Shown piece by piece: positions 38,429-52,284 of a stretch of DNA of 64,000 nt. A model generated the notes under the pieces. That model made no database searches. It was not told the DNA's origin and was given only the letters and a program-made list of their open reading frames with translations. Origin of the DNA: Micromonospora halotolerans (GTDB taxonomy: Bacteria; Actinomycetota; Actinomycetes; Mycobacteriales; Micromonosporaceae); the NCBI RefSeq assembly GCF_032108445.1, contig NZ_CP134876.1, forward strand, positions 5,456,001 through 5,520,000. The letters run 5' to 3'. Each line of letters begins with the position of its first letter. Within the stretch, counting starts at the first letter, position 1. The position numbers were made by a program, and so were the translations under genes.

Positions 38429-38440
38429 GGAAACGTTTTC
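38429..38440. promoter_or_regulatory. LacI-family operator 1
   Basis: GGAAACGTTTTC: AAACGTTT core, centre at about 38434.5, just upstream of a TTGACC -35-like box (38452-38457). The central CG step and A/T flanks are those of LacI/GalR-family sites. Confidence 0.7.
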
Positions 38441-38451
38441 GTAACGAGCCC

Positions 38452-38481
38452 TTGACCGGACCGTCGGGACGGGCGCAGACT
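38452..38481 (+). promoter_or_regulatory. candidate promoter of the lacI operon
   Basis: TTGACC (38452-38457) and CAGACT (38476-38481) with an 18-base spacer. The pair lies exactly between operators 1 and 2, so the repressor would flank it. Confidence 0.45.
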
Positions 38482-38484
38482 CCC

Positions 38485-38498
38485 GGAAACGTTTACAG
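38485..38498. promoter_or_regulatory. LacI-family operator 2
   Basis: GGAAACGTTTACAG: same AAACGTTT core, centre at 38490.5, directly after the putative -10 box. Centre distance to operator 1 is 56 bases and to operator 3 is 43 bases. Confidence 0.75.
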
Positions 38499-38520: not shown

Positions 38521-39612
38521 GTGGGTCGTAAACGTTTACAGGAGTCGGCCGACGGCCGGCCCACCGTCCACACCGTCGCCGCCCGCGCCGGTGTCTCCAT
38601 CGCCTCCGCCTCGCGCGTGCTCAACGGCGTCGGCGGCAGCCCGGAGACCGTGCGCAAGGTGCGCGAGGCGGCGGCCGAGGTCGGCTACGTGCCCAACGCC
38701 ATCGCCCGCTCGCTCCAGTCGCAGCGCACCGGCCTCGTCGCGCTCGCCGTCGAGGACATCGGCAACCCGGTGTACGTCGAGATGATGCGCGCCATCGAGT
38801 CCGTGGTCGCCGCGTCCGGGCGGCAGCTCCTGGTGCACGCCACCGGCGGGCGGATCGACAACGAGACCGCGCTGCTGCGCCGGCTGGCCCACCGCTACGT
38901 CGACGGGATGATCGTCTCGCCGATCCGGGTCACCGGCGACCACCTCGCCGCGCTGGTCGACAGCCCGGTGCCGGTGGTCGTGGTCGGGCAGCTCCCCGCC
39001 GACGCGCCGGTGGACAACGTCCGCACCGACTCGCGTACCGGCGTGGGCCTGGCCGTCGACCACCTGGTCGCGGCCGGCCGGCGGCGGATCGGCTTCGTCA
39101 ACGGCCCGCTGGACACGGTGCCCGGCGCGGCCCGCGACGCCGGCTTCCGGGCCGCCCTCGCCCGGCACGGCATCGCGCTCGACGAGCGCCTCGTCGAGGT
39201 CGGCGACTTCCGGTACGCGGCCGGCCGGGCCGCCACCGAGCGCCTCCTGGCCCGCGCCGAGCCCGACGCGCTGGTCTGCGCCAACGACCTGATCGCCGTC
39301 GGCGCGCTGCACGCCCTGCTCGCCGCCGGCCGGCGCGTCCCCGACGACGTGGCGCTGGTCGGTATGGACGACACCGAGCTGGCCCGGATGATGTTCCCGC
39401 AGCTCTCCAGCGTCTCCCTCGGCTCGGCCGAGCGCGGACGCCGCGCCGCCGAACTGCTGCTGTCGCGCATCGCCGACCCGAGCCTGCCGCCGCGCCGCGA
39501 GCAGGTCGCCCCCAGCCTCGCCGTGCGCGCCTCCAGCGCCACGACGCCGCTGTCCGTTCCCGCGCCGGCCGGGCCGGCGCCCGCGCCGCGTACCCCGGAG
39601 GTGACGGCATGA
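38521..39612 (+). CDS. LacI family transcriptional regulator
   Basis: 363-residue repressor. The N-terminal helix-turn-helix PTVHTVAARAGVSIASASRVLNGVGGSPETVRKVREAAAEVGYVPNAIARSLQSQRTG (residues about 15-70) is followed by a periplasmic-binding-protein-like core with ALAVEDIGNPVYVEM, VDNVRTDSRTGVGLAVDHLVAAGRRRIGFVNGP and DALVCANDLIAVGALHAL. GTG 38521 has GGAGG at 38508-38512; no other start fits before the HTH. Codon 6 is TTA, created by the third operator inside codons 3-7. First gene of an 11-gene operon and its likely autorepressor; the C-terminal 30 residues are Pro/Ala-rich. Confidence 0.93.
   Translation: MGRKRLQESADGRPTVHTVAARAGVSIASASRVLNGVGGSPETVRKVREAAAEVGYVPNAIARSLQSQRTGLVALAVEDIGNPVYVEMMRAIESVVAASGRQLLVHATGGRIDNETALLRRLAHRYVDGMIVSPIRVTGDHLAALVDSPVPVVVVGQLPADAPVDNVRTDSRTGVGLAVDHLVAAGRRRIGFVNGPLDTVPGAARDAGFRAALARHGIALDERLVEVGDFRYAAGRAATERLLARAEPDALVCANDLIAVGALHALLAAGRRVPDDVALVGMDDTELARMMFPQLSSVSLGSAERGRRAAELLLSRIADPSLPPRREQVAPSLAVRASSATTPLSVPAPAGPAPAPRTPEVTA
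38528..38539. promoter_or_regulatory. LacI-family operator 3, inside the lacI coding start
   Basis: GTAAACGTTTAC: perfect 12-bp palindrome, centre 38533.5, lying within codons 3-7 of lacI. Same core as operators 1 and 2 and the most symmetric of the three. Confidence 0.8.
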
Positions 39613-40541
39613 CCACGGTGGCCGAACGGCCCGACGTCGGCCGCGCCGACGGGCCTCGCAAGGCCCGGTCCCGCTCCGACCGGCTGGGCATCTACCTGCT
39701 GCTGCTCCCGTCGCTGCTGCCCATCGTGGTGCTGTCCGTCTTCCCGCTGCTGCGGGGCATCTGGCTCGGCTTCACCGACGCCCGGGCCGGCCGCAACGTC
39801 GAGATCAGCTTCACCGGGCTGGAGAACTACCGGGAACTGCTCGGCGACGAGCTGTTCTGGAACTCGTTCAAGATCGGCCTGCTCTGGGCGGTCGGGGTGA
39901 CCGTGCTCCAGTTCGTGCTCGCCCTGGGCCTCGCACTCCTGCTCAACCAGCAACTGCGCTTCCGCGGGCTGGCCCGAGTGCTGGCCGTGGTCCCCTGGGC
40001 GATGCCCCCCGTGGTGGTCGGCATCCTGTGGAAGCTGGTCTACCACCCGGACGCCGGCCTGCTGAACGAGTTCTTCCACCGGGTCGGCGCGGACGGGCTG
40101 CGCACCAACTGGCTCGGCGACTTCAGCACCGCCCTGCCCGCGGTCATCATCGTCGGCGTCTGGGCCGGCATGCCGCAGACCACCGTCGTGCTCCTCGCCG
40201 GACTGCAGGGCGTGCCCCGCGAGCTGCACGAGGCGGCCGCCGTGGACGGCGCGAGCACCTGGCACCGGTTCCGCAACGTCACGCTGCCCGCCATCGCGCC
40301 GGTCGTCGTGGCGATCACCTCGCTGGACTTCATCTGGAACTTCAACTCGTTCGGCCTGGTCTACGTGCTCACCGCGGGCGGGCCGGGCGGCAAGACCATG
40401 CTGCCGATGCTCTTCGCCTACGAGGAGGCGTTCCGCTACGGCAACTACGGCTACGCCGCCGCCCTCGGCAACGTCATGGTCGTGATCATCGTCGCGCTGC
40501 TCGCGGTCTACCTGCGGCGCCGACTCCGGGAGGCGAACTGA
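39609..40541 (+). CDS. sugar ABC transporter permease, MalF type
   Basis: 310-residue membrane protein, six helices. First helix LGIYLLLLPSLLPIVVLSVFPLL, then WLGFTDARAG; EAA loop LHEAAAVDGASTWHRFRNVTLPAIAPVVV; later WNFNSFGLVYVLTAGGPGGKTMLPMLFAYEEAFR, classic for CUT1 permeases. The ATG overlaps the lacI stop by four bases. Works with the next permease and the lipoprotein at 41423; no ATPase gene is in the operon. Confidence 0.94.
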   Translation: MTTVAERPDVGRADGPRKARSRSDRLGIYLLLLPSLLPIVVLSVFPLLRGIWLGFTDARAGRNVEISFTGLENYRELLGDELFWNSFKIGLLWAVGVTVLQFVLALGLALLLNQQLRFRGLARVLAVVPWAMPPVVVGILWKLVYHPDAGLLNEFFHRVGADGLRTNWLGDFSTALPAVIIVGVWAGMPQTTVVLLAGLQGVPRELHEAAAVDGASTWHRFRNVTLPAIAPVVVAITSLDFIWNFNSFGLVYVLTAGGPGGKTMLPMLFAYEEAFRYGNYGYAAALGNVMVVIIVALLAVYLRRRLREAN

Positions 40542-40542
40542 C

Positions 40543-41382
40543 ATGTTCGGAAAGCCGAGCCGCACCGGGCGGACCCTCCAGTACGTCGCGCTGACCGGCT
40601 ACCTGATCTTCCTCGGGTTCCCGCTGGTCTGGCTGCTCTCCACCGCGTTCAAGCCGCCGCGCGAACTGGTGCGGCTGCACCCCACGCTCATCCCCAGCAA
40701 CCCCACCGTGCAGAACTTCGTGCAGGCCTTCACCGAGCAGCAGCTCGGCCGGGCCGCGCTGAACAGCCTCCAGGTGTCGCTCGCCTCGGCGGTGCTCACC
40801 GTGCTGGTCGCGCTGCCCGCCTCGTACGCGCTCGCCCGGTTCCGGACCAAGCTGGGCACCGTGGCGCTGGGCTGGGTGCTGCTGTCGCAGCTCTTCCCGT
40901 TCGTGCTGCTGATCATCCCGATCTTCCTGATCCTGCGGCAGGTCGGGCTGGCCAACACGCACGCCGGCCTGGTGCTGATCTACGTGGTCTGGGCGCTGCC
41001 GTTCGCGCTGTGGATGCTGCAGGGCTTCGTCCGCAACATCCCGCGCGAGCTGGAGGAGGCGGCCAGCGTCGACGGCGCCAGCCGGCTGCAGGTGCTGCGT
41101 CGGGTGGTCTTCCCGCTGCTCGCGCCGGGCATCGTGGCGACCGCGCTGTTCTCCTTCATCTCCGCCTGGAACGAGTTCTTCTTCGCGCTGGTGCTGGTCA
41201 AGACGCCCGAGCTGGCGACCCTGCCGGTCGCCCTGGCCCGGTTCGTCGGCATCGAGGGCACCGCCCGCCTGGGTCCCCTGGCGGCCGGTTCGCTGCTGGC
41301 CACCCTGCCGAGCCTGATCTTCTTCGCGGTCATGCAACGCCGCCTCTCGTCCGGGTCGCTCGCCGGCGCGGTCAAGGGCTGA
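40543..41382 (+). CDS. sugar ABC transporter permease, MalG type
   Basis: 279-residue partner permease. First helix ALTGYLIFLGFPLVWLLSTAF followed by KPPRELV; EAA loop LEEAASVDGASRLQVLRRVVFPLLAPGIVATALFSFISAWNEFFFALVL is textbook MalG. ATG start one base after the stop of the previous permease. The stop is 40 bases before the lipoprotein gene. Confidence 0.94.
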   Translation: MFGKPSRTGRTLQYVALTGYLIFLGFPLVWLLSTAFKPPRELVRLHPTLIPSNPTVQNFVQAFTEQQLGRAALNSLQVSLASAVLTVLVALPASYALARFRTKLGTVALGWVLLSQLFPFVLLIIPIFLILRQVGLANTHAGLVLIYVVWALPFALWMLQGFVRNIPRELEEAASVDGASRLQVLRRVVFPLLAPGIVATALFSFISAWNEFFFALVLVKTPELATLPVALARFVGIEGTARLGPLAAGSLLATLPSLIFFAVMQRRLSSGSLAGAVKG

Positions 41383-41422
41383 CCACATCCCCCCCACAAC
41401 CACCACCAAGGAGGAAACCCCC

Positions 41423-42718
41423 ATGCTCCGTAGCAGGTTCCGCCGACTCGCCGCGGCCGCCGCGGTCGCGGTCGTCGGGCTCGGCGCCCTCACCGCGTGC
41501 GGTGACGGCGGCGGCGAGGACGAGAACTCGTCCGGTCCGGTCAAGCTGCGCTTCCTCAGCCTCGCCTGGCAGAAGGAGTCGCTGCAGGCGAACAAGGACC
41601 TGGTCGCCAAGTGGAACGCCGAGCACCCGGACATCCAGGTCGAGTACGTCCAGGGCGACTGGAACTCGATCCACGACCAGCTCGTCACCTCGTTCGAGGG
41701 CGGCGACGTGGCCGACATCGTGCACTACGAGGCCTCGGCGATCGGCGAGTTCAGCAAGCAGGGCTACCTGGCCGACGTCTCGAAGCTGCTGAGTGACGAC
41801 TTCAAGGGCCAGATCGACCCGGGCGTCTGGGACACCGCCACCTTCGACGGCAAGGTCACCGGCGTGCCGTTCCTGCTGGAGTCGCAGGTCGTCATCGCCA
41901 ACAAGAAGCTGCTCGACGCCGCCGGCGTCACCGTTCCGCCCGCCGACGGCGGCTGGACCTGGGACGAGTTCCAGGCCAACGCGCAGAAGCTCACCAAGCC
42001 CGGCCAGTACGGCGCCGCGTGGGCACTCAAGTCGCCCACCAACCGGGTGCTGAACCTGGCGCTGAACTACGACGGCAAGTTCTTCTACGGCGACGGCGGC
42101 AAGACCGAGGTCAAGGTCGGCGACGCGGAGAAGGAGGTGCCGAAGCGGATCCACGACATGATCTACACAACCAAGTCGGCCTCCCCGGAGGCGCTGGGCA
42201 TGAGCGGCGCGGACACCCTGCCGGGCTTCTTCGGCGGCAAGTACGCGATGCTCCCCGGCTCGGTCTCGCTGCGCCAGCAGATGGTCGAGCAGGCCCCCGC
42301 CGGCTTCGAGTGGGTGACCCTCCCGCCGGTCAAGGGCCTCTCCGCCAAGCAGGCGGCCAACCCGCAGACCCTGTCCATCGCCGAGGACAGCAAGCACAAG
42401 AAGCAGGCCGCGCAGTTCCTGGAGTGGTTCCTGAACCCGACCAACATGGCCGCCCTGGCCAAGGGTGACTGGCTGGTGCCCACCGGCAAGCAGGCCAACC
42501 AGGAGCTGGTCAAGCTCACCGGCGGCAAGCAGGGCTGGGACGTCGCCGCGAACAGCGCCGCCGACCTGACCGTCGCCCCGTTCCAGAAGGCCGACGGCTA
42601 CCCGGAGTGGAAGACCAAGTACGCCACCCCGGCCCTCCAGCAGTACTTCGCCAACAAGATCACCCTGGACCAGCTCGCCACGCAGCTGGTCGACGGTGGC
42701 AAGCAGGTTCTGAGGTAA
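41423..42718 (+). CDS. sugar-type ABC transporter substrate-binding lipoprotein
   Basis: 431-residue family 1 binding protein. Lipobox LTAC with Cys26. Mature part: KLRFLSLAWQKESLQANKDLVAKWNAEHPDIQVEYVQGDW, FEGGDVADIVHYEAS, then YLADVSKLL and a C-terminal helical lobe ending LVDGGKQVLR. AAGGAGG precedes the ATG at ideal spacing, the strongest ribosome site of the operon, which fits the need for excess binding protein. The ligand is unknown, but the following catabolic genes point to a glycosyl or ribosyl compound. Confidence 0.92.
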   Translation: MLRSRFRRLAAAAAVAVVGLGALTACGDGGGEDENSSGPVKLRFLSLAWQKESLQANKDLVAKWNAEHPDIQVEYVQGDWNSIHDQLVTSFEGGDVADIVHYEASAIGEFSKQGYLADVSKLLSDDFKGQIDPGVWDTATFDGKVTGVPFLLESQVVIANKKLLDAAGVTVPPADGGWTWDEFQANAQKLTKPGQYGAAWALKSPTNRVLNLALNYDGKFFYGDGGKTEVKVGDAEKEVPKRIHDMIYTTKSASPEALGMSGADTLPGFFGGKYAMLPGSVSLRQQMVEQAPAGFEWVTLPPVKGLSAKQAANPQTLSIAEDSKHKKQAAQFLEWFLNPTNMAALAKGDWLVPTGKQANQELVKLTGGKQGWDVAANSAADLTVAPFQKADGYPEWKTKYATPALQQYFANKITLDQLATQLVDGGKQVLR

Positions 42719-42720
42719 CC

Positions 42721-43854
42721 ATGTCACTCTTGCTCGACACGTCGGTCGGTTGCCTGGTCGGCGCCGCGGTGGGCGACGCCCTCGGCGGGGCCACCGAGAC
42801 GGCACTCCCGGAGCAGATCCGCGCCCGCTTCGGCGGCTGGGTCGAGGGGATCGTCCCCCCGTACCACGCCGACTGGGCCACCGCGCGGCCACTCGCGCCG
42901 TACCACAAGGGCGACGGGCACATCACCGACGACACGTTGATGACCCACGCGCTGGTGCGGGCGTACGCGGCCAAGCGGGACCACCTCGACGCGTACGACG
43001 TGGTGGAACTGCTCGTCCCCGACCTGATCGAGCGGGTGGTGTACATCCCGGACCTGGAGCGGGAGGGGGTGACCTTCCACCGCCTGGCCGCGGCCGAGCG
43101 GTGGTTGGTCACCCGCCTGCACCACGCCCACGCCGACCCGCGCGAGGCGGGCGTGGGCAACATCGTGAACTGCGGCGCCGCCATGTACATGGCCCCGGTC
43201 GGCATCGTCAACGCCGGCGACCCGGCCGGCGCGTACGCCGAGGCCGTGGAGATCGCCGGGGCGCACCAGCACAGCTACGGGCGGGAGGCCGCGGCGGTGT
43301 TCGCCGCCGCGGTCGCCGCGGCCGCGACCCCCGGCGCGAGCGTCGACGACGTCGTGGCCGCCGCCCTGGACCTGGCCCGCGACGGCACCCGCGCCGCCAT
43401 CGACGCGGTGGTCAAGGAGGCCCGCGGGCACGACGACTGGAAGGCCGCCATTCCGGCGCTGCGCGCCGCCGTGGCCCCCTACGACACGGTGGGGGAGGAG
43501 TACCGCAGCCCCGGGCTGGGCGCCCGCCGCCCGAGCCGGCTGCACGCCATCGAGGAGCTGCCGGTGGCGCTGGGCATGCTCGTGGTGGCCGGCGGCGACT
43601 ACCGGGCGGCCGTGCTCGGCTCGGTCAACTACGGCCGGGACGCCGACTCCACGGCCACGATGGCCGGCGCGATCGCCGGGGCGCTCGGCGGCGCGGCCGC
43701 GGTGCCGGCCGAGTGGTCGGAGGTGGTCGCCACCGCGTCCCGCACCGACCTGGTCGAACCCGCCCGGGTCCTCGCCCGGGTCGCCACCGAGGTGTTCGAC
43801 CGCGACCGGGAGCGCTTCGCCCGGCGCGCCGAACGGTTCGGCGGGCTGGCATGA
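42721..43854 (+). CDS. ADP-ribosylglycohydrolase family protein (first of two)
   Basis: 377-residue all-alpha DraG/ARH-fold hydrolase. N-terminal GAAVGDALGG (residues 14-23), metal-binding TDDT at 69-72, and the C-terminal metal site in NYGRDADST (D307, D309). These are the di-magnesium ligands of the family, so it should be active. Known members remove ADP-ribose from proteins or hydrolyse related N- and O-ribosyl compounds. Here it is between a sugar importer and a ribokinase-like gene, which points to a small ribosylated metabolite rather than a protein target. ATG two bases after the lipoprotein stop. No signal peptide. Confidence 0.88.
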   Translation: MSLLLDTSVGCLVGAAVGDALGGATETALPEQIRARFGGWVEGIVPPYHADWATARPLAPYHKGDGHITDDTLMTHALVRAYAAKRDHLDAYDVVELLVPDLIERVVYIPDLEREGVTFHRLAAAERWLVTRLHHAHADPREAGVGNIVNCGAAMYMAPVGIVNAGDPAGAYAEAVEIAGAHQHSYGREAAAVFAAAVAAAATPGASVDDVVAAALDLARDGTRAAIDAVVKEARGHDDWKAAIPALRAAVAPYDTVGEEYRSPGLGARRPSRLHAIEELPVALGMLVVAGGDYRAAVLGSVNYGRDADSTATMAGAIAGALGGAAAVPAEWSEVVATASRTDLVEPARVLARVATEVFDRDRERFARRAERFGGLA

Positions 43855-45254
43855 GCGCTGCGGGCGCCGTGGCCGCCGGCCGGCCGAGGGGGACGGCCGG
43901 CGGACTGCGGCTGACCTGGGTGCAGCCGGAGGACCTGCTGCCGCACGAGCTGGCCGCCAGCGGCGACGAGGGCCGCGACGTCACCGCCCTGGCCGACCGC
44001 TGGGCGGCGGCGGGCGGCGACGTCACGGCACCGGTCAGCGGGGCGTCGCCGGTGCCGGCGCCGCCGGCGCTGCGGGCCCTCGCCGTCGACCTGCTCGACG
44101 CCGCCGACGCGCTGCCCGGACCGGACAGCGCGGACGAGCCCGACGACCTCGACGCGGTCCGCGCGACCTGGCCGAGCGCCTGGGACCTGCCGACCACCGT
44201 CGAGCGGGACCGGCTGCACGGCGCCTGGCTCGGCCGGGCGGCCGGCTGCCTGCTCGGCAAGCCGGTGGAGAAGATTCCCCGCCACGGGATCCGGGAGATC
44301 CTCACCGCCACCGGCCGGTGGCCGCTGCGCGACTGGTTCACGGCGCGCGGTCTGCCGGCCGACGTGGCCGCCCGCTGGCCGTGGAACCGGCGCAGCGCCC
44401 CGACCAGCCTCGCCGAGAACATCGCCGGCATGCCGGAGGACGACGACCTCAACTTCCCGCTGCTGGCGCTGCGCGTCCTGGAGACCCACGGACCCGGCTT
44501 CACCAGCGCCCACGTGGCCCAGGCGTGGCTGGACTGGCTGCCCGCCGGGCGGGTCTTCACCGCCGAGCGGGTCGCCTACCGCAACCTGCTGCTCGGCCTC
44601 ACCCCGCCGGACACCGCCCGCCGGCACAACCCGTTCCGGGAGTGGATCGGCGCGCAGATCCGCGCCGACGTGTACGGCTGGACCAACCCCGGCCGCCCCG
44701 ACCGGGCCGCCGAGGCCGCCTGGCGCGACGCGGCCGTGAGCCACGTCCGGGCCGGCGCGTACGGGGCGATCTGGGTGGCCGCCATGGCCGCGGCCGCACC
44801 GGTGGCCGGCGACGTCGACGCGGTGCTGGACGCGGGCGAGTCGGTGCTGCCCCCGGGCAGCCGGTTCACCGCGGCCGTCCGCGAGGCGCGCGCCCTCGGC
44901 GCCGCCGGTGACGACTGGGAGAGCATCGTGGACACCCTCTACGCGCGGCACGGCCACCTGCACTGGGTGCACGTCCGCAACAACGCCGCCCTGGTCGCGG
45001 CGGCCCTGGCGTACGGGCGGGGCGACCTGGAACGCTCCATCTGCGCGGTCGTCGCCGGCGGCTGGGACACCGACTCCAACGGCGCCACCGTCGGCGCGGT
45101 CACCGGGGCGCTCACCGGCGCCGCCCGGCTGCCCGGCCGCTGGGTCGCGCCGCTGCGCAACCGGCTGGCCAGCAGCATCGCCGGCTTCGACGGCATCGGC
45201 TTCGACGAGCTGGCCGACCGTACCCTCGCTCTGGCCCACGGGAGCCTGGCATGA
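43851..45254 (+). CDS. ADP-ribosylglycohydrolase family protein (second of two)
   Basis: 467-residue protein of the same superfamily but a different branch. An N-terminal extension of about 115 residues precedes the core. Core motifs: GAWLGRAAGCLLGKPVEKI (GCLLGKP from residue 132), AGMPEDDDLNF (D197-D199), HVRNNAALVAAALAYG and the C-terminal metal site GGWDTDSNGATVGAVTGAL (D406, D408). Both metal-binding sites are kept. The tandem with 42721 is not a recent duplication, since lengths and motifs differ. ATG overlaps the preceding stop by four bases; the stop overlaps the PfkB start likewise. Confidence 0.88.
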   Translation: MSAAGAVAAGRPRGTAGGLRLTWVQPEDLLPHELAASGDEGRDVTALADRWAAAGGDVTAPVSGASPVPAPPALRALAVDLLDAADALPGPDSADEPDDLDAVRATWPSAWDLPTTVERDRLHGAWLGRAAGCLLGKPVEKIPRHGIREILTATGRWPLRDWFTARGLPADVAARWPWNRRSAPTSLAENIAGMPEDDDLNFPLLALRVLETHGPGFTSAHVAQAWLDWLPAGRVFTAERVAYRNLLLGLTPPDTARRHNPFREWIGAQIRADVYGWTNPGRPDRAAEAAWRDAAVSHVRAGAYGAIWVAAMAAAAPVAGDVDAVLDAGESVLPPGSRFTAAVREARALGAAGDDWESIVDTLYARHGHLHWVHVRNNAALVAAALAYGRGDLERSICAVVAGGWDTDSNGATVGAVTGALTGAARLPGRWVAPLRNRLASSIAGFDGIGFDELADRTLALAHGSLA

Positions 45255-46183
45255 GCGCCCGCGTGGCGGTGGTCGGCAGCGCCAACCTGGACCTCGTGGT
45301 GACCGCGCCGCAGCTGCCCCGCCCCGGCGAGACGGTGCTCGGCGACGACTTCCGGATGGTGCCCGGCGGCAAGGGCGCCAACCAGGCGGTCGCCGCCGCC
45401 CGGGCCGGCGCCGACTGCGCCTTCGTGGGCGCCATCGGCGGCGACGGGTTCGGCGGGCTGCTGCGGGACAACCTGGCCGCGGCCGGCGTCGACGTCGCCG
45501 GCCTGCGCACGGTCGACGGGCCGTCCGGGGTCGCGCTGATCGCGGTGGACCACGCGGCGGAGAACTGCATCGTGGTCGCCCCCGGCGCGAACGGCGCGCT
45601 GACCCTCGACGACGCCGACCGCGACGCGGTGGCGGCGGCCGGCGTGCTGCTGCTGCAACTGGAGGTGCCGCTGTCGGAGGTGACCCGGGCCGCCGGCTGG
45701 GCCCGGGCCGGCGGCGCCGCCGTGGTGCTCAACGCCGCCCCGGCCCGGCCGCTGCCCACCGAGCTGCTCGACCTGGTCGACGTGCTGGTGGTCAACGAGC
45801 ACGAGGCCGCCGTCGTCGCCGGGGTGTTCACCGACGAGCCGGCGGCCCTGCTCGACGCGCTGGTCGGCCTGGTGCCGCGGGTGGTACTCACCCTCGGCGC
45901 GCGCGGCGCCGCCTACGCCGACCGGGACGGCGCCCGGATCGAGGTGCCGGCCCCGACGATCGACGCGGTGGACACCACGGCCGCCGGCGACGCGTTCACC
46001 GGCGCGCTCGCGGTCGCCCTGGCCGAACGCGGCGGGCTCACCGGCGACACCGCCACCGGCGTGCTGCGCTGGGCGTGCGCCGCCGGCGCGGCCTGCGCCC
46101 AACGCCCCGGCGCGTCCACCGCCCTGCCCGAGCGGGACGCCATCGACGCGCTCGCCGCCGCCACCTACGGAGAGGTCCAGTGA
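45251..46183 (+). CDS. PfkB family carbohydrate kinase, ribokinase-like
   Basis: 310-residue cytoplasmic sugar kinase. Signature 1 is PGGKGANQAVAAARAGA (about residues 37-53) and signature 2 DTTAAGDAFTGALAVAL, with the catalytic Asp in AAGDAF. The N-terminus VAVVGSANLDLVVTAPQLPRPGETVLGDDF is the ribokinase form. It would phosphorylate ribose or another pentose released by the glycohydrolases upstream. Overlaps both neighbours by four bases. Confidence 0.92.
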   Translation: MSARVAVVGSANLDLVVTAPQLPRPGETVLGDDFRMVPGGKGANQAVAAARAGADCAFVGAIGGDGFGGLLRDNLAAAGVDVAGLRTVDGPSGVALIAVDHAAENCIVVAPGANGALTLDDADRDAVAAAGVLLLQLEVPLSEVTRAAGWARAGGAAVVLNAAPARPLPTELLDLVDVLVVNEHEAAVVAGVFTDEPAALLDALVGLVPRVVLTLGARGAAYADRDGARIEVPAPTIDAVDTTAAGDAFTGALAVALAERGGLTGDTATGVLRWACAAGAACAQRPGASTALPERDAIDALAAATYGEVQ

Positions 46184-48129
46184 GCTTCAACCCGTACGTG
46201 CCGCGGCCGATCGACCGGCCCACCGAGGTCCCGCTCGGCGGGCACGCCGACCTGACCAGCCTGGACGAGGCGAAGATCTTCGCCGCCCCCGACGACCCGG
46301 CCGACTGGCCGGCCTGGCGGGAGCAGCTCACCCGGTGGCGGGCCGACGCCCGCACCCGGCTCGGCTACACCGGCGCGCACTACGACGAGATCGCCGGCGA
46401 CTGTTTCAGCGTCTGCCTCGCCTGGCTCTGGGACGAGACGCTGTACGACCACGACCGCGGCGTGTTCACCGTCGAGGCGTTCCTCGACGGGGCGCGGCGC
46501 GACTTCGGCGGCTTCGACGGCGTGGTGCTCTGGCACGCGTACCCGGTCATCGGCGTGGACGAGCGCAACCAGTTCGACTGGTACCGGGACGTGCCCGAGC
46601 TGCCCGAGGTGGTCCGCGCGTTCCAGGCCGCCGGGGTCCGGGTGTTCGTCGACTACAACCCGTGGGACACCGGCACACGGCGGGAGGCCGGCGCGGACGC
46701 CGAGGAGGTCGCCGCGCTGGCCGGCCGGCTCGGCGTCGACGGGGTCTTCCTGGACACCCTGAAGGAGGGCGCCGGCGAGCTGCGCAAGGCCCTCGACGCG
46801 GTCCGCCCCGGCCTGGTCCTGGAGGGGGAGAGCCGGGTGCCGCTGGCCCGGATCGCCGACCACGCCATGTCCTGGGCGCAGTGGTTCGCCGACTCGGACA
46901 CCCCCGGCGTGCTGCGCGCCAAGTGGTTCGAACGCCGGCACGTCCTGCACCACACCCGCCGCTGGCACCGCGACCACCTCGACGAGCTGCACTCCGCCTG
47001 GCTCAACGGCTGCGGCGTGCTGGTCTGGGAGAGCGTCTTCGGTGTCTGGGTCGGCTGGAACGAGCGGGACCGGGCCGTGCTGCGGGCCATGCGTCGGGTG
47101 CAGGCCAGCCACGCCGCCTGGCTGCGCGCCGAGGACTGGGTCCCGCTCGCCGACCACCCCGGCGCCGGTCAGGTGTACGCGTCCCGCTGGACCCACGACG
47201 ACCAGCCGCTGTGGACGGTGGTCAACCGGGGCGCCGACCACGACGGCCCCTGGCTGCTCACCGACGCCCGGCCGGGGCGCTTCGTCGACCTGGTCACCGG
47301 CGCCGAGCTGACCGTCACCGAACTCGAGGACGGCCGGGTGGCCGTCGGCGGGCCGCTGCCCGCCGGGGCGATCGCCGCCGTGGTCGCCACCGAGGCGCCG
47401 GCGCCCCGCCACGAGCCGCCGACCGGGGACCCGTCGTTCCCGGCCCGCGTCGCCGTGCGCGCCCGCACCCCGTGGTCACCCCTCGCGGCCCTGCCCGACG
47501 GCATGGTGACCATGGAGGGTGGCCGGCACGAGCTGACCGTGCGCCACCGGGTCCGGGAGACCGGCCTCTACGGCGAGGCCCCGTACGTCGACGAGTGGAA
47601 GCCGCTGCCGCCGCGCCTGCACCACACCGGCACGCTGCGCCGCCAGGTCCGGCTCGGCCGCTTCGCCATCGACACCCACGAGGTCACCCACGGCGAGTAC
47701 GCGCGTTTCCTCGCCGCCACCGGCTACCGGCCGGTCCGGGCGGAACGGTTCACCGCCGGGCAGGGCCCCGCCGACGCCCCGGTCACCGGGGTCGACCTCG
47801 CCGACGCCCGCGCGTACGCCGACTGGGCCGGGCTGCGGCTGCCTACCGAGGACGAGTGGCAGGTGGCCGCCGAGGCGGGCCTGCTGGTCCGGCGGGAACC
47901 GCTGGTGTGGAACCTGACCGAGAGCGAGCACTCCGACGGGCGCACCCGCTTCGTCATCCTCAAGGGCGGCTGCGCCTACCGCGCGGAGGGCTCCGACTGG
48001 TACTTCGACGGCGGCCCGCAGCCGCCGGACGTGTCGGTGAAGCTGCTGCTCACCGGCGCCGGCCTGACCCGCTCCACCTCGATCGGTTTCCGCTGCGCCG
48101 CCGACCTGCCCGAAGGAGCCCTCCGATGA
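46180..48129 (+). CDS. glycosidase-like TIM-barrel protein fused to a SUMF1/FGE-like domain
   Basis: 649-residue cytoplasmic protein with two parts. Residues about 60-330 look like a glycoside hydrolase barrel: FGGFDGVVLWHAYPVIG, VRVFVDYNPWDTG, GVDGVFLDTLKEG (D192, possible nucleophile) and VLEGESRVPL (E215/E217). After a beta-sandwich linker (about 370-425), residues about 475-645 resemble formylglycine-generating enzyme: FAIDTHEVTHGEYARFLAATGYRP, LRLPTEDEWQVAAEAG, VWNLTESE and the final GFRCA. The two active-site Cys of true FGE are not at their usual places, so sulfatase maturation is doubtful. No close family could be named for the barrel. GTG start overlaps the kinase stop by four bases. 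Confidence 0.72.
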   Translation: MSFNPYVPRPIDRPTEVPLGGHADLTSLDEAKIFAAPDDPADWPAWREQLTRWRADARTRLGYTGAHYDEIAGDCFSVCLAWLWDETLYDHDRGVFTVEAFLDGARRDFGGFDGVVLWHAYPVIGVDERNQFDWYRDVPELPEVVRAFQAAGVRVFVDYNPWDTGTRREAGADAEEVAALAGRLGVDGVFLDTLKEGAGELRKALDAVRPGLVLEGESRVPLARIADHAMSWAQWFADSDTPGVLRAKWFERRHVLHHTRRWHRDHLDELHSAWLNGCGVLVWESVFGVWVGWNERDRAVLRAMRRVQASHAAWLRAEDWVPLADHPGAGQVYASRWTHDDQPLWTVVNRGADHDGPWLLTDARPGRFVDLVTGAELTVTELEDGRVAVGGPLPAGAIAAVVATEAPAPRHEPPTGDPSFPARVAVRARTPWSPLAALPDGMVTMEGGRHELTVRHRVRETGLYGEAPYVDEWKPLPPRLHHTGTLRRQVRLGRFAIDTHEVTHGEYARFLAATGYRPVRAERFTAGQGPADAPVTGVDLADARAYADWAGLRLPTEDEWQVAAEAGLLVRREPLVWNLTESEHSDGRTRFVILKGGCAYRAEGSDWYFDGGPQPPDVSVKLLLTGAGLTRSTSIGFRCAADLPEGALR

Positions 48130-50273
48130 GAAGAGCGTGGCGCCCCGGCGCCGCCCTGGTCGCCCTGCTGACCGCCGTCGGGCTCGCCGGCCTCGCCCCG
48201 GAGACCGCCGTCGCCGGCCGGGAGCGGTCCGGCACCCTCGCCACCGCGACCGCACCCTCGCCGGCCCTCGGCGCCGCCATCGACTACACCGTCTACCTCC
48301 CGTACGGCTACGGCGACGCGGCGAACGCCGGCACCCGCTACCCGGTGCTGTACCTGCTGCACGGGCGCGGCGACACCATGCAGGCGTGGACCCGGGTGAA
48401 GAGCGACCTGGACCGGCTCATCGCCGACGGCGAGGTGCCGCCGGTGATCGCCGTGCTGCCCGACGCGCCGTGGAGCGAGCGCGGCAACTGGTACGTCGAC
48501 TCCGCGTACACCGGCGCCGACCGCCCGGGCCGGCCGGTGGAGACCGCGCTGACCCGCGACCTCGTCGCGCACGTCGACGCCACGTACCGCACCGCCCCGC
48601 ACCGCAACGCCCGGCTGGTCGGCGGTTACTCGATGGGCGGGGCCGGCGCGCTGCGCTACGCGCTGGCCCACCAGGACCTCTTCGCCAACGCGCTGGTGCT
48701 CAGCCCGGCCGTCTACCGGCCGCTGCCACCGGCCGACTCGTCGGCCCGCGAGTTCGGCGCGTTCGGCGACGGCGACGAACCCTTCTCCGACGAGGTGTAC
48801 CAGCGGCTGAACTACCCGGCCCTGCTCCCCGGCCTCGACGCCGAGTCGCCGGTGCGGATGTTCATCGCCGTCGGCGACGACGAGTGGGCCAACCCCGACC
48901 CGGCCGACGCCGCGCACGACCTCGACTACGAGGCCGCCACCCTCTACAACACGGTGCGCCGGGCGGACGGCGTCGCCGCCGAGTTCCGTGTCCTGGACGG
49001 CGGGCACGACTGGGACGTCTGGCGGCCCGCGTTCGTCGACGGCCTGAAGCACCTGGCCGCCACGCTGAGCGTCACCCCGCCGGCCGGGCTGCCCGCCCCG
49101 CTGCACGGCACGGCCGGCGCCGACTGGGCCGGCGGGGTCGCCGCCCACCCGGACGGCGACGTCACCCTCGGCTACGCGGCCTCGGGCGCCGTCGCCGGCC
49201 AGCCGTACGCCGGCGGCCTGGACGCCGTGGTCACCCGGCTCGCCGCCGACCGCACGGTCCGCTGGACCAGCCAGTTCGGCACCACCGCCAACGACCGGCT
49301 CTACGGGACCGTGCCGCTGCCCGACGGCGGCGTGCTCACCGCCGGATACACCCGCGGCGACCTCGACGGCCGGCACCCGGCCAGCCCCGCCGACGACGCG
49401 TTCGTGGCGAAGCTGACCGCCGCCGGGCAGCGGGCCTGGCTCACCCAGGCCGGCGACCCCGGCAAGGCCGACCGGTTCTACGCGATCACCGCCGCCCCCG
49501 ACGGGGGCGCGTACGTCGCCGGCTACACCAGCGGCGCCTTCGGCGGGACCAGCGCCGGCGACAAGGACGCCGTCCTCGCCCGGATCGCCCCGGACGGCAC
49601 GCTGGCCTGGACCCGGCAGTTCGGCGGCCCCGGCGAGGACAAGGCGTACGCCGTGGCGGCCGACGCGAACGGGGTCTACGTGGCCGGTGGCACCTCCGGG
49701 GCGCTGCCCGGCACCACGCCGCTCGGCGGCGCCGACGGCTGGCTCGCCCGGTTCACCCCGGACGGCACCCGCGACTGGCTCACCGTGGCCGGCGGCACGG
49801 GCGACGATCTGCTCGGCGGCGTCACGGTCACCGGCTCCGGCCAGGTGGTGGCCACCGGCGCCACGGCCGGGGACGTGCTCACCGTGGCGTACACGGCCAC
49901 GGGCGCGCAGCGCTGGCGGACCGTCACCGGCGGGCGCGGCGCGGACGCCGGCACCGACGTGCTGGCCCTCGCCGACGGCACCGTCGCGGTGGTCGGCTTC
50001 ACGGGCAGCACCCTCGGCGTGCCGGCCGGCGGCGCGGACGTGCTCACCCTGCGCCTCGACGGCAAGGGCCGGCAGGTCGCCGTCGCCCAGTACGGCACCG
50101 CCCGCGACGACGCCGCCGACCCGTTCGGCGAGGAGAACGTCTACGCCACCGTGGGGCCCGGCGGCCGGCTGCTGGTCAGCGGCCGTACCGCCGGCACGCC
50201 CGACGGCGGCGCCGCGCTCGGCGACGGGGACGTGTTCCTCGCCGCCGTCGACCCGGTGAAGGGGACGCCATGA
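48126..50273 (+). CDS. secreted esterase with C-terminal SBBP beta-propeller repeats
   Basis: 715-residue exported protein. Signal peptide with VALLTAVGLAGLAPETAVAG, cleavage near residue 31. The esterase D/PF00756 domain (about 50-320) has YPVLYLLHGRGDTMQAWTR, nucleophile elbow GGYSMGG with Ser169, acid in VGDDEWANPDP and His in DGGHDWDVWRPAF. Residues about 335-710 hold six or so repeats of the SBBP form (WTSQFGTTANDRLYG, AWTRQFGGPGEDKAYAVAADANGVYVAG, VYVAGGTSGAL), a beta-propeller. Likely frees an acyl group outside the cell before import of the rest. ATG overlaps the previous stop by four bases. Confidence 0.88.
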   Translation: MRRAWRPGAALVALLTAVGLAGLAPETAVAGRERSGTLATATAPSPALGAAIDYTVYLPYGYGDAANAGTRYPVLYLLHGRGDTMQAWTRVKSDLDRLIADGEVPPVIAVLPDAPWSERGNWYVDSAYTGADRPGRPVETALTRDLVAHVDATYRTAPHRNARLVGGYSMGGAGALRYALAHQDLFANALVLSPAVYRPLPPADSSAREFGAFGDGDEPFSDEVYQRLNYPALLPGLDAESPVRMFIAVGDDEWANPDPADAAHDLDYEAATLYNTVRRADGVAAEFRVLDGGHDWDVWRPAFVDGLKHLAATLSVTPPAGLPAPLHGTAGADWAGGVAAHPDGDVTLGYAASGAVAGQPYAGGLDAVVTRLAADRTVRWTSQFGTTANDRLYGTVPLPDGGVLTAGYTRGDLDGRHPASPADDAFVAKLTAAGQRAWLTQAGDPGKADRFYAITAAPDGGAYVAGYTSGAFGGTSAGDKDAVLARIAPDGTLAWTRQFGGPGEDKAYAVAADANGVYVAGGTSGALPGTTPLGGADGWLARFTPDGTRDWLTVAGGTGDDLLGGVTVTGSGQVVATGATAGDVLTVAYTATGAQRWRTVTGGRGADAGTDVLALADGTVAVVGFTGSTLGVPAGGADVLTLRLDGKGRQVAVAQYGTARDDAADPFGEENVYATVGPGGRLLVSGRTAGTPDGGAALGDGDVFLAAVDPVKGTP

Positions 50274-51463
50274 CCACGACCGCCCCGCTGCACGGCGTCA
50301 AGGTGGTCGACCTGGCCACCCTCTTCGCCGGCCCGCTGGCCGCCGCGTTCCTCGGCGACTTCGGCGCCGACGTGGTCAAGGTGGAGCATCCCGCCAAGCC
50401 GGACCCGTCCCGGGGCCACGGCCCCGCGAAGGACGGCGTCGGCCTGTGGTGGAAGGTGCTCGGCCGCAACAAGCGGACCGTCACGCTCAACCTCTCCCGG
50501 CCGGAGGGCGCGGACCTGCTGCGCCGGCTGCTCGCCGACGCCGACGTGCTGGTGGAGAACTTCCGCCCCGGCACCCTGGAGCGCTGGGGTCTCGGCCCGG
50601 ACGAGCTGCACGCGGTCAACCCGCGGCTGGTGATCGCCCGGATCAGCGGCTTCGGGCAGGTCGGCCCGTACGCGCCCCGGCCCGGGTTCGGCACCCTGGC
50701 CGAGGCGATGAGCGGCTTCGCGGCGGCCACCGGGGAGCCCGACGGGCCGCCGACCCTGCCCCCGTTCGGGCTGGCCGACTCGGTCACCGCGCTCGCCGCC
50801 GCGTACGCGGTCATGCTGGCCCTGCGCGGCCGCGACCTGACCGGCCGGGGCCAGGTGGTCGACCTGGCCATCATCGAGCCGATCATGGCGATGCTCGGCC
50901 CGCAGATCACCTGGTACGACCAGCTCGGCTACGTCCAGCCCCGGCTGGGCAACCGGTCCAACAACAACGCGCCCCGCAACACCTACCGGTGCGCCGACGG
51001 GCGGTGGGTGGCCGTGTCCACCAGCGCGCAGAGCATCGCCGAGCGGGTGGTCCGGCTCGTCGGCCGCCCGGAACTCGTGGACGAGCCGTGGTTCGCCACC
51101 GGCAGCGGCCGGGCCGCGCACGCCGACGAACTCGACGCGGCGGTCGGCGCGTGGGTGGGCAAGCGGGACCGGGACGAGGTGGTGGCCGCGTTCGAGGCGG
51201 CCCAGGCCGCCGTGGCCCCCGTCTACGACGTGCGCGACATCCTGGCCGACCCGCAGTACGCGGCGCTCGGCACCGTGGTCACCGTGCCCGACGAGGAGTT
51301 GGGGGAGGTGCGGATGCAGAACGTGCCGTTCCGGATGTCGGACAGCCCGGGGGAGATCCGGCACGCCGGCCGCCGCCACGGCCAGGACACCGACGCGGTG
51401 CTCGGCGCGCTCGGCCTGACCGCCGACGAGCTTTCCGCACTGCGCGAGCGCGGGGTGATCTGA
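50270..51463 (+). CDS. CaiB/BaiF family (class III) CoA-transferase
   Basis: 397-residue cytoplasmic CoA-transferase. N-terminal GVKVVDLATLFAGPLAAAFLGDFGADVVKVEHP, then LGRNKRTVTLNLSRPEGADLLRRLLADADVLVENFRPGTLERWGLG, and the strand GQVVDLAIIEP with catalytic Asp198. Class III enzymes move CoA between carboxylic acids (oxalate, malate, citramalate, carnitine and others). With the CitE-like lyase next door, it would activate a hydroxy-dicarboxylic acid for cleavage. ATG overlaps the esterase stop by four bases. Confidence 0.93.
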   Translation: MTTTAPLHGVKVVDLATLFAGPLAAAFLGDFGADVVKVEHPAKPDPSRGHGPAKDGVGLWWKVLGRNKRTVTLNLSRPEGADLLRRLLADADVLVENFRPGTLERWGLGPDELHAVNPRLVIARISGFGQVGPYAPRPGFGTLAEAMSGFAAATGEPDGPPTLPPFGLADSVTALAAAYAVMLALRGRDLTGRGQVVDLAIIEPIMAMLGPQITWYDQLGYVQPRLGNRSNNNAPRNTYRCADGRWVAVSTSAQSIAERVVRLVGRPELVDEPWFATGSGRAAHADELDAAVGAWVGKRDRDEVVAAFEAAQAAVAPVYDVRDILADPQYAALGTVVTVPDEELGEVRMQNVPFRMSDSPGEIRHAGRRHGQDTDAVLGALGLTADELSALRERGVI

Positions 51464-52284
51464 TGCTGCTCACCTGGCTCTACGTGCCCGGCGACCGGCC
51501 CGACCGGTTCGCCAAGGCGGTCGCGGCCGGCGCCGACGCGGTCATCCTCGACCTGGAGGACGCCGTGGTGGCCGGTCGCAAGGCGTACGCCCGCGACGCC
51601 GTCGCCGAGTTCCTCGCCGACCCGCAGCCACTGCCCGTGCAGGTGCGGGTCACCGAGCTGACCGGCCCGGACCTCGACGTCGACCTGGCCGCCGTCGCGG
51701 GCCGGCCGGGGCTGGCCGGGCTGCGACTGCCCAAGGTGGAGTCACCGGCGACGGTGGCCGCGGTGGCCGCCCGGGTCGACACCCCGCTGCACCCGCTGGT
51801 CGAGTCGGCCGTCGGGCTGGAGTCCGCGTACGCCATCGCGGCCGCCCACCCGGCGGTGGCCTCGCTCGGGCTCGGCGAGGCCGACCTCCGCTCCGACCTG
51901 GGCGTCGCCGACGACGACGGCCTGCTCTGGGCGCGCGGCCGGATCGTGGTCGCGGCCCGCGCGGCCGGCCTGCCGCCGCCGGCCATGTCGGTGTACGCCG
52001 ACGTGGCCGACCTCGACGGCCTGGCGGCCTCCTGCGCGGCCGGCCGGCGGCTCGGCTTCCTGGGCCGGGCCGCCATCCACCCGCGCCAGCTGCCGGTGAT
52101 CACCGACGCGTTCCGCCCCGGCGACCGCGAGGTGGACCGGGCCCGCGAGCTGCTCGCCGCGGTCGCCGACGCGCACACCCGCGACTCCGGCACGGTGGTG
52201 CTGCCCGACGGGCGGTTCGCCGACCGGGCCATGGTGGCCGCCGCCCGGCGGGTCGTCGACCTCGCCGCCCGCTACGCCGCCTGA
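51463..52284 (+). CDS. HpcH/HpaI aldolase/citrate lyase beta-subunit-like (CitE-like) lyase
   Basis: 273-residue cytoplasmic TIM-barrel lyase, last gene of the operon. CitE motifs: TWLYVPGDRPDRFAKAVAAGADAVILDLEDAVVAGRKAYARD at the N-terminus, LRLPKVESP with the metal-linked Glu, and SLGLGEADLRSDLGVA, ending LGFLGRAAIHPRQLPVI. Stand-alone members cleave or hydrolyse malyl-CoA, citramalyl-CoA or relatives to acetyl-CoA plus an oxoacid. Pairing with the CoA-transferase gives a two-step cleavage module. ATG shares one base with the preceding stop (TGATG). Confidence 0.92.
   Translation: MLLTWLYVPGDRPDRFAKAVAAGADAVILDLEDAVVAGRKAYARDAVAEFLADPQPLPVQVRVTELTGPDLDVDLAAVAGRPGLAGLRLPKVESPATVAAVAARVDTPLHPLVESAVGLESAYAIAAAHPAVASLGLGEADLRSDLGVADDDGLLWARGRIVVAARAAGLPPPAMSVYADVADLDGLAASCAAGRRLGFLGRAAIHPRQLPVITDAFRPGDREVDRARELLAAVADAHTRDSGTVVLPDGRFADRAMVAAARRVVDLAARYAA

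What the first reader, a model, noticed from the sequence alone, without database searches (positions are those of the whole stretch)
38521..52284. Eleven-gene LacI operon joining a sugar importer, two ADP-ribosylglycohydrolases, a ribokinase-like kinase, a secreted esterase and a CoA-transferase/CitE lyase pair
Seen: eleven same-strand genes, nearly all joined by ATGA, GTGA or TGATG overlaps, with one regulator and one importer. Known of the families: ARH/DraG proteins cleave ribosyl bonds; PfkB ribokinases phosphorylate pentoses; class III CoA-transferases with CitE-like lyases cleave hydroxy-dicarboxylates (malate, citramalate) to acetyl-CoA and an oxoacid. Inferred: an extracellular ester or glycoside is first trimmed by the exported esterase, imported, cleaved by the glycohydrolases, its sugar phosphorylated, and its acid part broken down. 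I know of no described pathway with this gene set, and ARH proteins in an importer operon point to small ribosylated metabolites rather than proteins.
Basis: partly seen in the sequence, partly recalled or inferred. Interest (0 to 1): 0.85.

Follow-up and report, generated by a model that had tools for sequence, protein, structure and literature searches.

The report
Conserved ribosidase-importer-lyase catabolic operon
A set of about ten genes that travels together through many soil and plant bacteria seems to import an unknown sugar-acid compound, split it with enzymes of a family best known for clipping ADP-ribose off proteins, and feed both halves into central metabolism.

Summary
Confirmed: eleven same-strand genes (38521-52284), 7 of 10 junctions overlapping, one LacI regulator with three operators. 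It is not a local accident. All eight core genes (importer MalF-MalG-SBP, ARH1, ARH2, a GH13-like/FGE fusion enzyme, CoA-transferase, CitE lyase) lie in one locus in 72 of the 80 named relatives kept from a scan with the fusion enzyme; six of the other eight are cut by contig ends. In 298 genomes of the order, all 29 with the fusion enzyme are among the 40 with ARH2. The set reaches Alphaproteobacteria and Deinococcota. The kinase is common but dispensable; the esterase is accessory (29 of 80).
The eighth gene, which the title leaves out, is the most diagnostic. Two sphingomonads have kinase, a divergent fusion enzyme, a GH127-family furanosidase and a CoA-transferase in a row, without ARHs there; this suggests that the ARH pair is an intracellular furanosidase.
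Best explanation: catabolism of an imported, sometimes esterified furanoside, probably ribosyl, of a hydroxy acid: hydrolysis, phosphorylation of the sugar, CoA-activation and cleavage of the acid. Substrate unknown; no biochemistry was possible. No paper describing this gene set turned up in seven searches. New variant of a known kind.

The parts
38431..38438 (.). LacI-type operator core AAACGTTT, copy 1
   Evidence: Only three exact AAACGTTT sites lie in the 64-kb window, all here
38452..38481 (+). Probable promoter: TTGACC (38452-38457), 18-bp spacer, CAGACT (38476-38481)
   Evidence: Read by eye from the stretch printed; TTGACC with CAGACT or CAAACT in 7 of the 8 relatives printed there, and TTGACC alone in the eighth (L092), whose printed stretch ends too early. 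Inferred, not scanned or measured
38487..38494 (.). LacI-type operator core, copy 2
38530..38537 (.). LacI-type operator core, copy 3, inside the first LacI codons
   Evidence: AANCGNTT in the LacI-start region of 76 of 84 loci with room, against 67 of 2880 control windows (some genomes counted twice); named loci only: 55 of 56 against 45 of 1963
38521..39612 (+). LacI-family regulator, GTG start
   Evidence: Pfam LacI and Peripla_BP_3; relative L082 has ATG at the same place
39609..40541 (+). ABC importer permease, MalF-like
   Evidence: ORF; name from position and appearance; conserved in relatives
40543..41382 (+). ABC importer permease, MalG-like
   Evidence: ORF; name from position and appearance; conserved in relatives
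41423..42718 (+). Solute-binding lipoprotein of the importer
   Evidence: Pfam SBP_bac_1 137.5 bits; no close solved relative (best E 5.1e-19); lipoprotein by eye
42721..43854 (+). ARH1: ADP-ribosylglycohydrolase-family hydrolase, 377 aa
   Evidence: Pfam PF03747; TDDT in 104 of 105 (1 gap) and D307, D309, S310 in 105 of 105 cassette sequences, of which 96 are distinct
43851..45254 (+). ARH2: second ARH-family hydrolase, 467 aa, with an extra N-terminal helical part
   Evidence: Pfam PF03747; model pLDDT 90.2, nearest folds MJ1187, DraG-type and ARH3; D197-D199 in 105 of 105, D406 and D408 in 104 of 105 with 1 gap, S409 in 101 of 105
45251..46183 (+). PfkB kinase, ribokinase-like
   Evidence: Closest solved chain ribokinase 6znx, E 1.8e-72
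46180..48129 (+). Fusion enzyme: GH13-like barrel plus C-terminal FGE/EgtB-like domain (GHFGE in the notes)
   Evidence: Only Pfam hit is FGE-sulfatase 78.5 bits at 488-574; model pTM 0.76, pLDDT 72.3, resembles alpha-amylases; D187, D192, E217, H254 in 107 of 107 (98 distinct)
48126..50273 (+). Secreted esterase with beta-propeller repeats (accessory)
   Evidence: Pfam Esterase and SBBP; signal peptide by eye; homologue in 29 of 80 named loci, 25 of them over at least 70% of the query; Ser of GYSMGG in 29 of 29 aligned from both sets
50270..51463 (+). Class III CoA-transferase
   Evidence: Pfam CoA_transf_3 413.9 bits; D170 in 106 of 106
51463..52284 (+). CitE-like C-C lyase
   Evidence: Pfam HpcH_HpaI; best NCBIfam RipC_Ccl 149.8 bits, cut-off 375; E114 and D141 in 106 of 106

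Best explanation
A self-contained catabolic cassette for one small furanoside, most likely a ribofuranoside, joined to or released with a 2-hydroxy acid and sometimes carrying an ester. Proposed steps: (1) outside, the esterase removes an acyl group (only in strains that have it); (2) the binding protein and the MalF-MalG permeases import the glycoside, energised by an ATPase encoded elsewhere; (3) inside, the GH13-like/FGE fusion enzyme opens one glycosidic bond and the ARH1-ARH2 pair, acting as binuclear-metal furanosidase(s), frees the pentose; (4) the ribokinase-like enzyme phosphorylates it into the pentose phosphate pool; (5) the CoA-transferase activates the remaining hydroxy acid and the CitE lyase splits its CoA ester into an acyl-CoA and a 2-oxo acid. 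LacI represses from three operators around one promoter until a sugar appears. Shown: gene set, order, conservation, conserved residues, operators. Inferred: every reaction, the sugar, the acid and the order of steps.
For: 72 of 80 named relatives hold all eight core genes in one locus (the 80 were chosen by the fusion enzyme, so its own 80 of 80 is by construction). In 298 genomes of the order, all 29 with the fusion enzyme are among the 40 with ARH2 (Fisher p about 1e-31, which ignores shared ancestry). Gene order holds across several actinobacterial families while flanks differ. Protein distances of six genes correlate 0.83-0.94 over 70 loci (shared species history would also give this). 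In Devosia the fusion gene is about 150 kb away from the rest of the set. In alphaproteobacteria the ARH2 slot is filled by a 698-699-aa ARH of another type. Sphingopyxis FD7 shows TonB receptor-ribokinase-fusion enzyme-GH127-CoA-transferase, and Sphingomonas ERG5 the same kinase-fusion-GH127-CoA-transferase run with a CitE homologue and a second, closer fusion enzyme within about 13 kb, with no ARH in the stretch. Kinase nearest to ribokinases. A fusion-enzyme paralogue in genome G271, with a signal-like N-terminus by eye, lies beside genes most like allose/ribose/galactofuranose ABC importers. Metal-site and lyase residues conserved.
Against: No substrate is known. CoA-transferase and CitE may serve another molecule: relatives of the pair lie adjacent in Burkholderia stagnalis, Nonomuraea and Streptantibioticus (neighbours there not looked at). 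Importer-ARH1-ARH2 occurs with no CoA-transferase, CitE or fusion-enzyme match in the 25 kb fetched in Phyllobacterium and Nitratireductor, so the cassette may be two modules. L049 has the rest without the fusion enzyme. The kinase is missing in 5 of 72 full clusters. The swap argument is imperfect: the sphingomonad fusion enzyme in the row with GH127 is a distant paralogue (about 32-35% to the window; the 61% one lies apart), the CoA-transferase there is 31% to the window's, GH127 enzymes are not known ribosidases (recalled; best model aceric acid hydrolase, 117.4 of 950 bits), and Sphingomonas ERG5 does have one ARH-family gene on another contig (253.2 bits) although no ARH1-type match.
Confidence: 0.47

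Rival explanations
1. Two pathways under one switch: importer, ARHs, kinase and fusion enzyme break down a glycoside, while CoA-transferase and CitE handle a different organic acid that occurs with it in nature, or work backwards to assimilate glyoxylate or another oxo acid.
For: Both halves occur apart: importer-ARH pair alone in Rhizobiales; adjacent CoA-transferase-CitE relatives elsewhere; a relative of the Sphingopyxis CoA-transferase sits with a CoA ester lyase and a tricarboxylate-transporter binding protein in Variovorax.
Against: The two halves stay together in 72 of 80 loci across distant lineages, and the sphingomonad variant keeps kinase, a fusion enzyme and a CoA-transferase in one run of genes with another furanosidase family.
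Confidence: 0.27
2. Salvage of modified nucleosides or NAD-derived ribosides: the ARHs cut N-ribosyl bonds, and the acid is a side group of the base.
For: ARH enzymes known for N-glycosidic cleavage (recalled); E. coli yegTUV pairs an ARH with a predicted nucleoside symporter and a sugar kinase.
Against: No base-handling gene (deaminase, phosphoribosyltransferase, nucleoside hydrolase) among the eleven genes; the binding protein is of SBP_bac_1 type.
Confidence: 0.1
3. Ordinary alpha-glucoside utilisation: the GH13-like enzyme does the work and the ARHs regulate proteins by de-ADP-ribosylation, as DraG does.
For: Importer and barrel resemble maltose systems.
Against: No ADP-ribosyltransferase family among the eleven genes; ARH1 in 76 and ARH2 in 77 of 80 loci, and four ARH genes in Jiangellaceae and Trueperaceae; CoA-transferase and lyase unexplained.
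Confidence: 0.07
4. Detoxification of a ribosylated antibiotic or plant compound rather than feeding.
For: Patchy distribution: 1 of 396 genomes of the phylum sample, the window's own.
Against: Importer, kinase and acyl-CoA lyase point to carbon use; no efflux or drug-modifying family among the eleven genes.
Confidence: 0.05

Closest known systems
E. coli yegTUV operon (nucleoside symporter, ARH, sugar kinase; repressor GgaR/YegW)
   Same: ARH next to a predicted sugar kinase and a transporter; functions still unknown (passages of PMC10819704)
   Different: One ARH, symporter instead of ABC importer, no CoA-transferase, lyase, fusion enzyme or esterase among its three genes
Bacteroides thetaiotaomicron ribose-scavenging locus (recalled; the paper was not held)
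   Same: ARH and ribokinases in a sugar-uptake locus (recalled)
   Different: SusCD uptake; no CoA-transferase-CitE pair (recalled, not tested)
Itaconate / citramalate degradation (RipA-RipB-RipC, Ccl)
   Same: CitE-like lyase; RipC_Ccl is its best NCBIfam model (149.8 of 375 bits)
   Different: Score far under the cut-off, class III CoA-transferase, no hydratase family among the eleven genes
DraG / ARH3 ADP-ribosyl hydrolases
   Same: Fold and both metal motifs
   Different: ARH2 model has 13-21% identity to the 50 matches listed; paired, in an importer operon
GH13 alpha-amylases, and separately formylglycine-generating-enzyme-like proteins
   Same: Barrel resembles amylases, C-terminus matches FGE-sulfatase Pfam
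   Different: No GH Pfam hit; no FGE-type Cys pair conserved; the two parts are fused

Membership tests
ARH / ADP_ribosyl_GH (PF03747) | Curated Pfam score | tested here: met
   166.8 and 160.7 bits, cut-off 26.2
ARH / ADP_ribosyl_GH (PF03747) | Both acidic metal-binding motifs | tested here: met
   ARH1 TDDT and D-x-DS, ARH2 DDD and D-x-D, in 104-105 of 105 sequences; S409 of ARH2 in 101 of 105 (96 distinct). Role of the motifs recalled
ARH / ADP_ribosyl_GH (PF03747) | Hydrolysis of ADP-ribosyl bonds | not testable with these tools
   Needs an assay; not claimed
Ribokinase (TIGR02152) | NCBIfam equivalog cut-off 299.65 bits | tested here: not met
   267.2 bits; likely works like one but not filed as one
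GH13 | Amylase-like barrel | tested here: inconclusive
   Best Foldseek match E 1.2e-9 but TM 0.34/0.43 and 8.4 A rmsd; model pLDDT 72.3
GH13 | Catalytic Asp (strand 4) and Glu (strand 5) | tested here: inconclusive
   D192 and E217 in 107 of 107, at the ends of the fourth and fifth barrel strands as I count them in the model; not superposed on a known site
Formylglycine-generating enzyme | Conserved catalytic/copper Cys pair (recalled) | tested here: not met
   C598 is Cys in 27 of 107; the columns with Cys in over 30% are only 75, 79 and 639, none invariant
RipC / (S)-citramalyl-CoA lyase | NCBIfam cut-off 375 bits | tested here: not met
   149.8 bits
CitE-like lyase superfamily | Pfam score and Glu/Asp metal ligands | tested here: met
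   98.1 bits, cut-off 25; E114, D141 in 106 of 106; ligand role recalled
MalFG-type ABC sugar importer | Binding protein of SBP_bac_1 type with two permeases | tested here: inconclusive
   Binding protein met; permeases not scanned against a library
MalFG-type ABC sugar importer | ATPase | tested here: not met
   None among the eleven genes; a 57% relative of the alphaproteobacterial cassette ATPase is at G000:C1:4750336

The most novel reading that the evidence does not exclude
The ARH1-ARH2 pair is a class of small-molecule furanosidases working as a two-subunit enzyme, the GH13-like/FGE fusion is an undescribed glycoside hydrolase family, and together with the CoA-transferase and CitE they form a widespread undescribed pathway for a ribofuranosyl hydroxy acid that is abundant enough in soils to be worth a dedicated, horizontally moving cassette.
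Probability: 0.33. Interest if true: 0.75.

Novelty: new variant of a known kind. Interest (0 to 1): 0.57.

Why it matters
The ARH family is studied almost only as erasers of protein and DNA ADP-ribosylation (recalled). A conserved cassette that nearly always holds two ARHs beside an importer and an acyl-CoA lyase says that much of the family in bacteria may be carbohydrate-active, and it gives a ready set of purified-enzyme tests. It also points to an unknown natural product, sugar plus hydroxy acid, apparently used by many soil and plant-associated bacteria.

Tried and rejected
Substrate guesses weighed and dropped for lack of any gene-level support: bacillithiol, thuringiensin, arsenosugars, apiose and apionate, RG-II aceric acid, orchid 2-isobutylmalate esters, malate esters (recalled chemistry only).

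Downstream TetR (52766) and CehA-like hydrolase (53453): found next to the cassette only in Micromonospora relatives, so left out. Kinase as core: rejected, absent in 5 of 72 full clusters. Protein-regulatory ARH role: see rivals.

Solute-binding protein and CoA-transferase searches gave no specific substrate. The second structure aligner was not available. The phylum sample held the fusion enzyme only in the window's own genome (1 of 396), so it gave no new contexts. The genome-contig scan found 316 relatives but kept only the best 80; the 236 others were not seen.

Gene calls in relatives come from a script of my own tuned for GC-rich DNA; it missed genes in some alphaproteobacteria, so counts rest on tblastn, which asks for same-strand matches anywhere in the fetched locus. 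ARH3 and ARH4 labels can also fall on ARH2 copies (ARH3 at L092 and L129 are such), so I use them only for loci whose gene map I saw. The two sets of loci share genomes: of 107 fusion-enzyme sequences 98 are distinct, of 105 ARH1 and of 105 ARH2 96 each.

I lowered the main confidence from 0.50 to 0.47, the novel case from 0.35 to 0.33, and raised the two-pathway rival from 0.25 to 0.27 for it and for the distant kinship of the sphingomonad genes.
Full report
OBSERVATION. The window lies at G000:C1:5456001-5520000 of a complete 6.96-Mb genome. It belongs to Micromonospora by inference: G084, listed as 'same genus', holds the cassette on a contig of 35329 bases, the length of the Micromonospora sp. 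AMSO31t contig behind L076. Eleven + strand genes run from 38521 to 52284. Junctions are -4, +1, +40, +2, -4, -4, -4, -4, -4 and -1 bp.

REGULATION. The only three exact AAACGTTT sites of the 64-kb window sit at 38431, 38487 and 38530, around a likely promoter (TTGACC-18-CAGACT, read by eye) and over the first LacI codons. AANCGNTT occurs in the LacI-start region of 76 of 84 relatives with room, against 67 of 2880 control windows; some genomes are in that set twice, and the named loci alone give 55 of 56 against 45 of 1963. The GTG start at 38521 is backed by an ATG at the same place in L082. Together with the overlaps this argues for one autoregulated transcript; it was not measured.

CONSERVATION. 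ARH2 (P0003) matched in 40 of 298 genomes of the order. 40 regions were fetched: 39 other genomes and a second ARH locus of the window's own. 28 of these 40 hold all eight core genes. Of the twelve others, L049 lacks the fusion enzyme; the other eleven are different ARH settings, among them L065 with a 65% ARH1 on the opposite strand beside a 47% ARH2. The fusion enzyme searched on its own in 298 genomes of the order gives 29, all of them among the 40 with ARH2. A scan of named genomes with the fusion-enzyme alignment found 316 relatives, of which the best 80 were kept, so its own presence there is by construction. All eight core genes (MalF, MalG, SBP, ARH1, ARH2, fusion enzyme, CoA-transferase, CitE) are in one locus in 72 of 80; the kinase in 67 of those 72, LacI in 68, the esterase in 27 (29 of 80 overall, 25 over at least 70% of the query). 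Of the eight incomplete ones, L096, L099, L117, L126, L127 and L130 are cut by contig ends, L119 is Devosia and L122 is Sphingomonas. The commonest order, 33 of 80, is LacI-MalF-MalG-SBP-ARH1-ARH2-kinase-fusion-CoA-transferase-CitE; 18 more have the esterase where the window has it. Outside close relatives the flanking genes are hardly shared. In a broad phylum sample only the window's own genome of 396 matched, so the cassette is patchy.

OTHER PHYLA. Alphaproteobacterial loci L125, L127 and L131 carry ARH1 (41-44% to the window), an ARH2 of another type (698 aa), an ATPase, CoA-transferase, CitE and the fusion enzyme (56-60%), without the kinase; importer genes are seen in L125 and L131. In Devosia the LacI-importer-ARH1-ARH2-CoA-transferase-CitE run (L167, G298:C9 about 410-420 kb) and the fusion gene (C9:262 kb) are about 150 kb apart. 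Trueperaceae (Deinococcota) L133 has part of LacI at the contig edge, importer, four ARH genes, CoA-transferase, CitE and the fusion enzyme. In the fusion-enzyme tree the five Pseudomonadota rows form one group (support 100) beside Jiangellaceae (support 84), which suits transfer; the two Deinococcota rows have long branches and their place is unsure.

SWAPPED FURANOSIDASE. Sphingomonas ERG5 has no ARH1-type match in its genome. It does have one ARH-family gene on another contig (253.2 bits), whose context I did not see. Its cluster holds, in a row, a kinase (50% to the window's), a divergent fusion enzyme (about 32-34%), a GH127-family protein (PF07944 135.6 bits) and a class III CoA-transferase (31%); within about 13 kb lie a CitE homologue (35%), an SSF symporter, TonB receptors and a second fusion enzyme (61%). 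The Sphingopyxis FD7 plasmid has TonB receptor-ribokinase-fusion enzyme (34.6%)-GH127-CoA-transferase in a row, as annotated. GH127 is named as a beta-L-arabinofuranosidase family by Pfam. I read this as one kind of furanosidase standing in for another; the distant kinship of these copies and the unlinked ARH weaken the argument. A paralogue of the fusion enzyme in genome G271 (unnamed; a signal-like N-terminus by eye) is followed by genes whose best NCBIfam models are D-allose binding protein, ribose permease and galactofuranose ATPase, all under their cut-offs.

MODULES. In Phyllobacterium and Nitratireductor plasmids LacI-permeases-binding protein-two ARHs-UgpC stands with no tblastn match to CoA-transferase, CitE or fusion enzyme in the 25 kb fetched; Pseudochrobactrum shows ARH1 only. 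Whether their chromosomes hold the fusion enzyme was not searched. Relatives of CoA-transferase and CitE lie next to each other in Burkholderia stagnalis, Nonomuraea and Streptantibioticus (adjacency from coordinates, neighbours not looked at). So the cassette looks like two or three modules that came together; this is the main evidence against a single pathway.

ENZYMES. ARH1 and ARH2 keep both acidic motifs in practically all cassette copies; the ARH2 model (pLDDT 90.2) is nearest to MJ1187, DraG-type proteins and ARH3. Jiangellaceae add two ARH genes, of which the second has no DxD motif at the usual place in the six actinobacterial copies printed, and in L049 these two are one 676-aa protein with two ARH stretches: a fusion that suggests ARH proteins working as partners. 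The kinase is nearest to ribokinases but under the NCBIfam ribokinase cut-off. The fusion enzyme is predicted as an amylase-like barrel followed by an FGE/EgtB-like domain (pTM 0.76, pLDDT 72.3), with D187, D192, E217 and H254 in 107 of 107 and no conserved FGE-type Cys pair. CitE keeps E114 and D141 in 106 of 106; its best NCBIfam models, RipC and CitE, are far under cut-off.

READING. I propose uptake and stepwise breakdown of a furanoside of a hydroxy acid, as set out in Best explanation, with confidence 0.47. Ribose rests on the kinase, the ARH fold and the sugar importers near the paralogue, none decisive; the acid rests on family knowledge of CitE lyases and class III CoA-transferases (recalled). 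Rivals are given with what would refute them.

PRINT. Seven text searches aimed at the gene set or its parts showed no listed paper that describes it; an eighth only asked about strain ERG5. The listings are capped and the library holds open-licence papers only. The nearest described operon that I saw is yegTUV, whose functions its authors call unknown (passages).

Noticed in passing
L075 (G000:C1:5878001-5898000): The same genome has a second LacI-ribokinase-ARH-importer cluster with a 687-aa ARH (about 33% to the alphaproteobacterial ARH2) and no CoA-transferase or CitE match.
   Followed up: partly
L118:4538-6558, L133:3343-5351, L049:11874-13901: Two extra ARH genes in Jiangellaceae and Trueperaceae, fused into one two-domain protein in L049; the second has lost the second metal motif in the six actinobacterial copies printed.
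   Followed up: partly
L180:5462-10454: Fusion-enzyme paralogue with a signal-like N-terminus beside a ribose/allose-type ABC importer and a LacI gene.
   Followed up: partly
L185, L187: LacI-importer-ARH1-ARH2-UgpC operons on Rhizobiales plasmids without the lyase genes.
   Followed up: partly
window 53453-55231: CehA/McbA-like metallohydrolase (NCBIfam 64.3 bits, cut-off 80) downstream of the operon, next to the cassette only in Micromonospora relatives.
   Followed up: no
L181:19860-22031: Spirosoma plasmid with a 30% relative of the fusion enzyme among Gfo/Idh/MocA oxidoreductases, a GH28 and a GH36: a different sugar context for this enzyme family.
   Followed up: no
window 42721-43851, residues 150-156 of ARH1: ARH1 reads NCGAAMY where the solved MJ1187 reads SCGAAMR; Y156 is invariant in the 14 aligned ARH1 rows. 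It may mark a changed ligand site.
   Followed up: no
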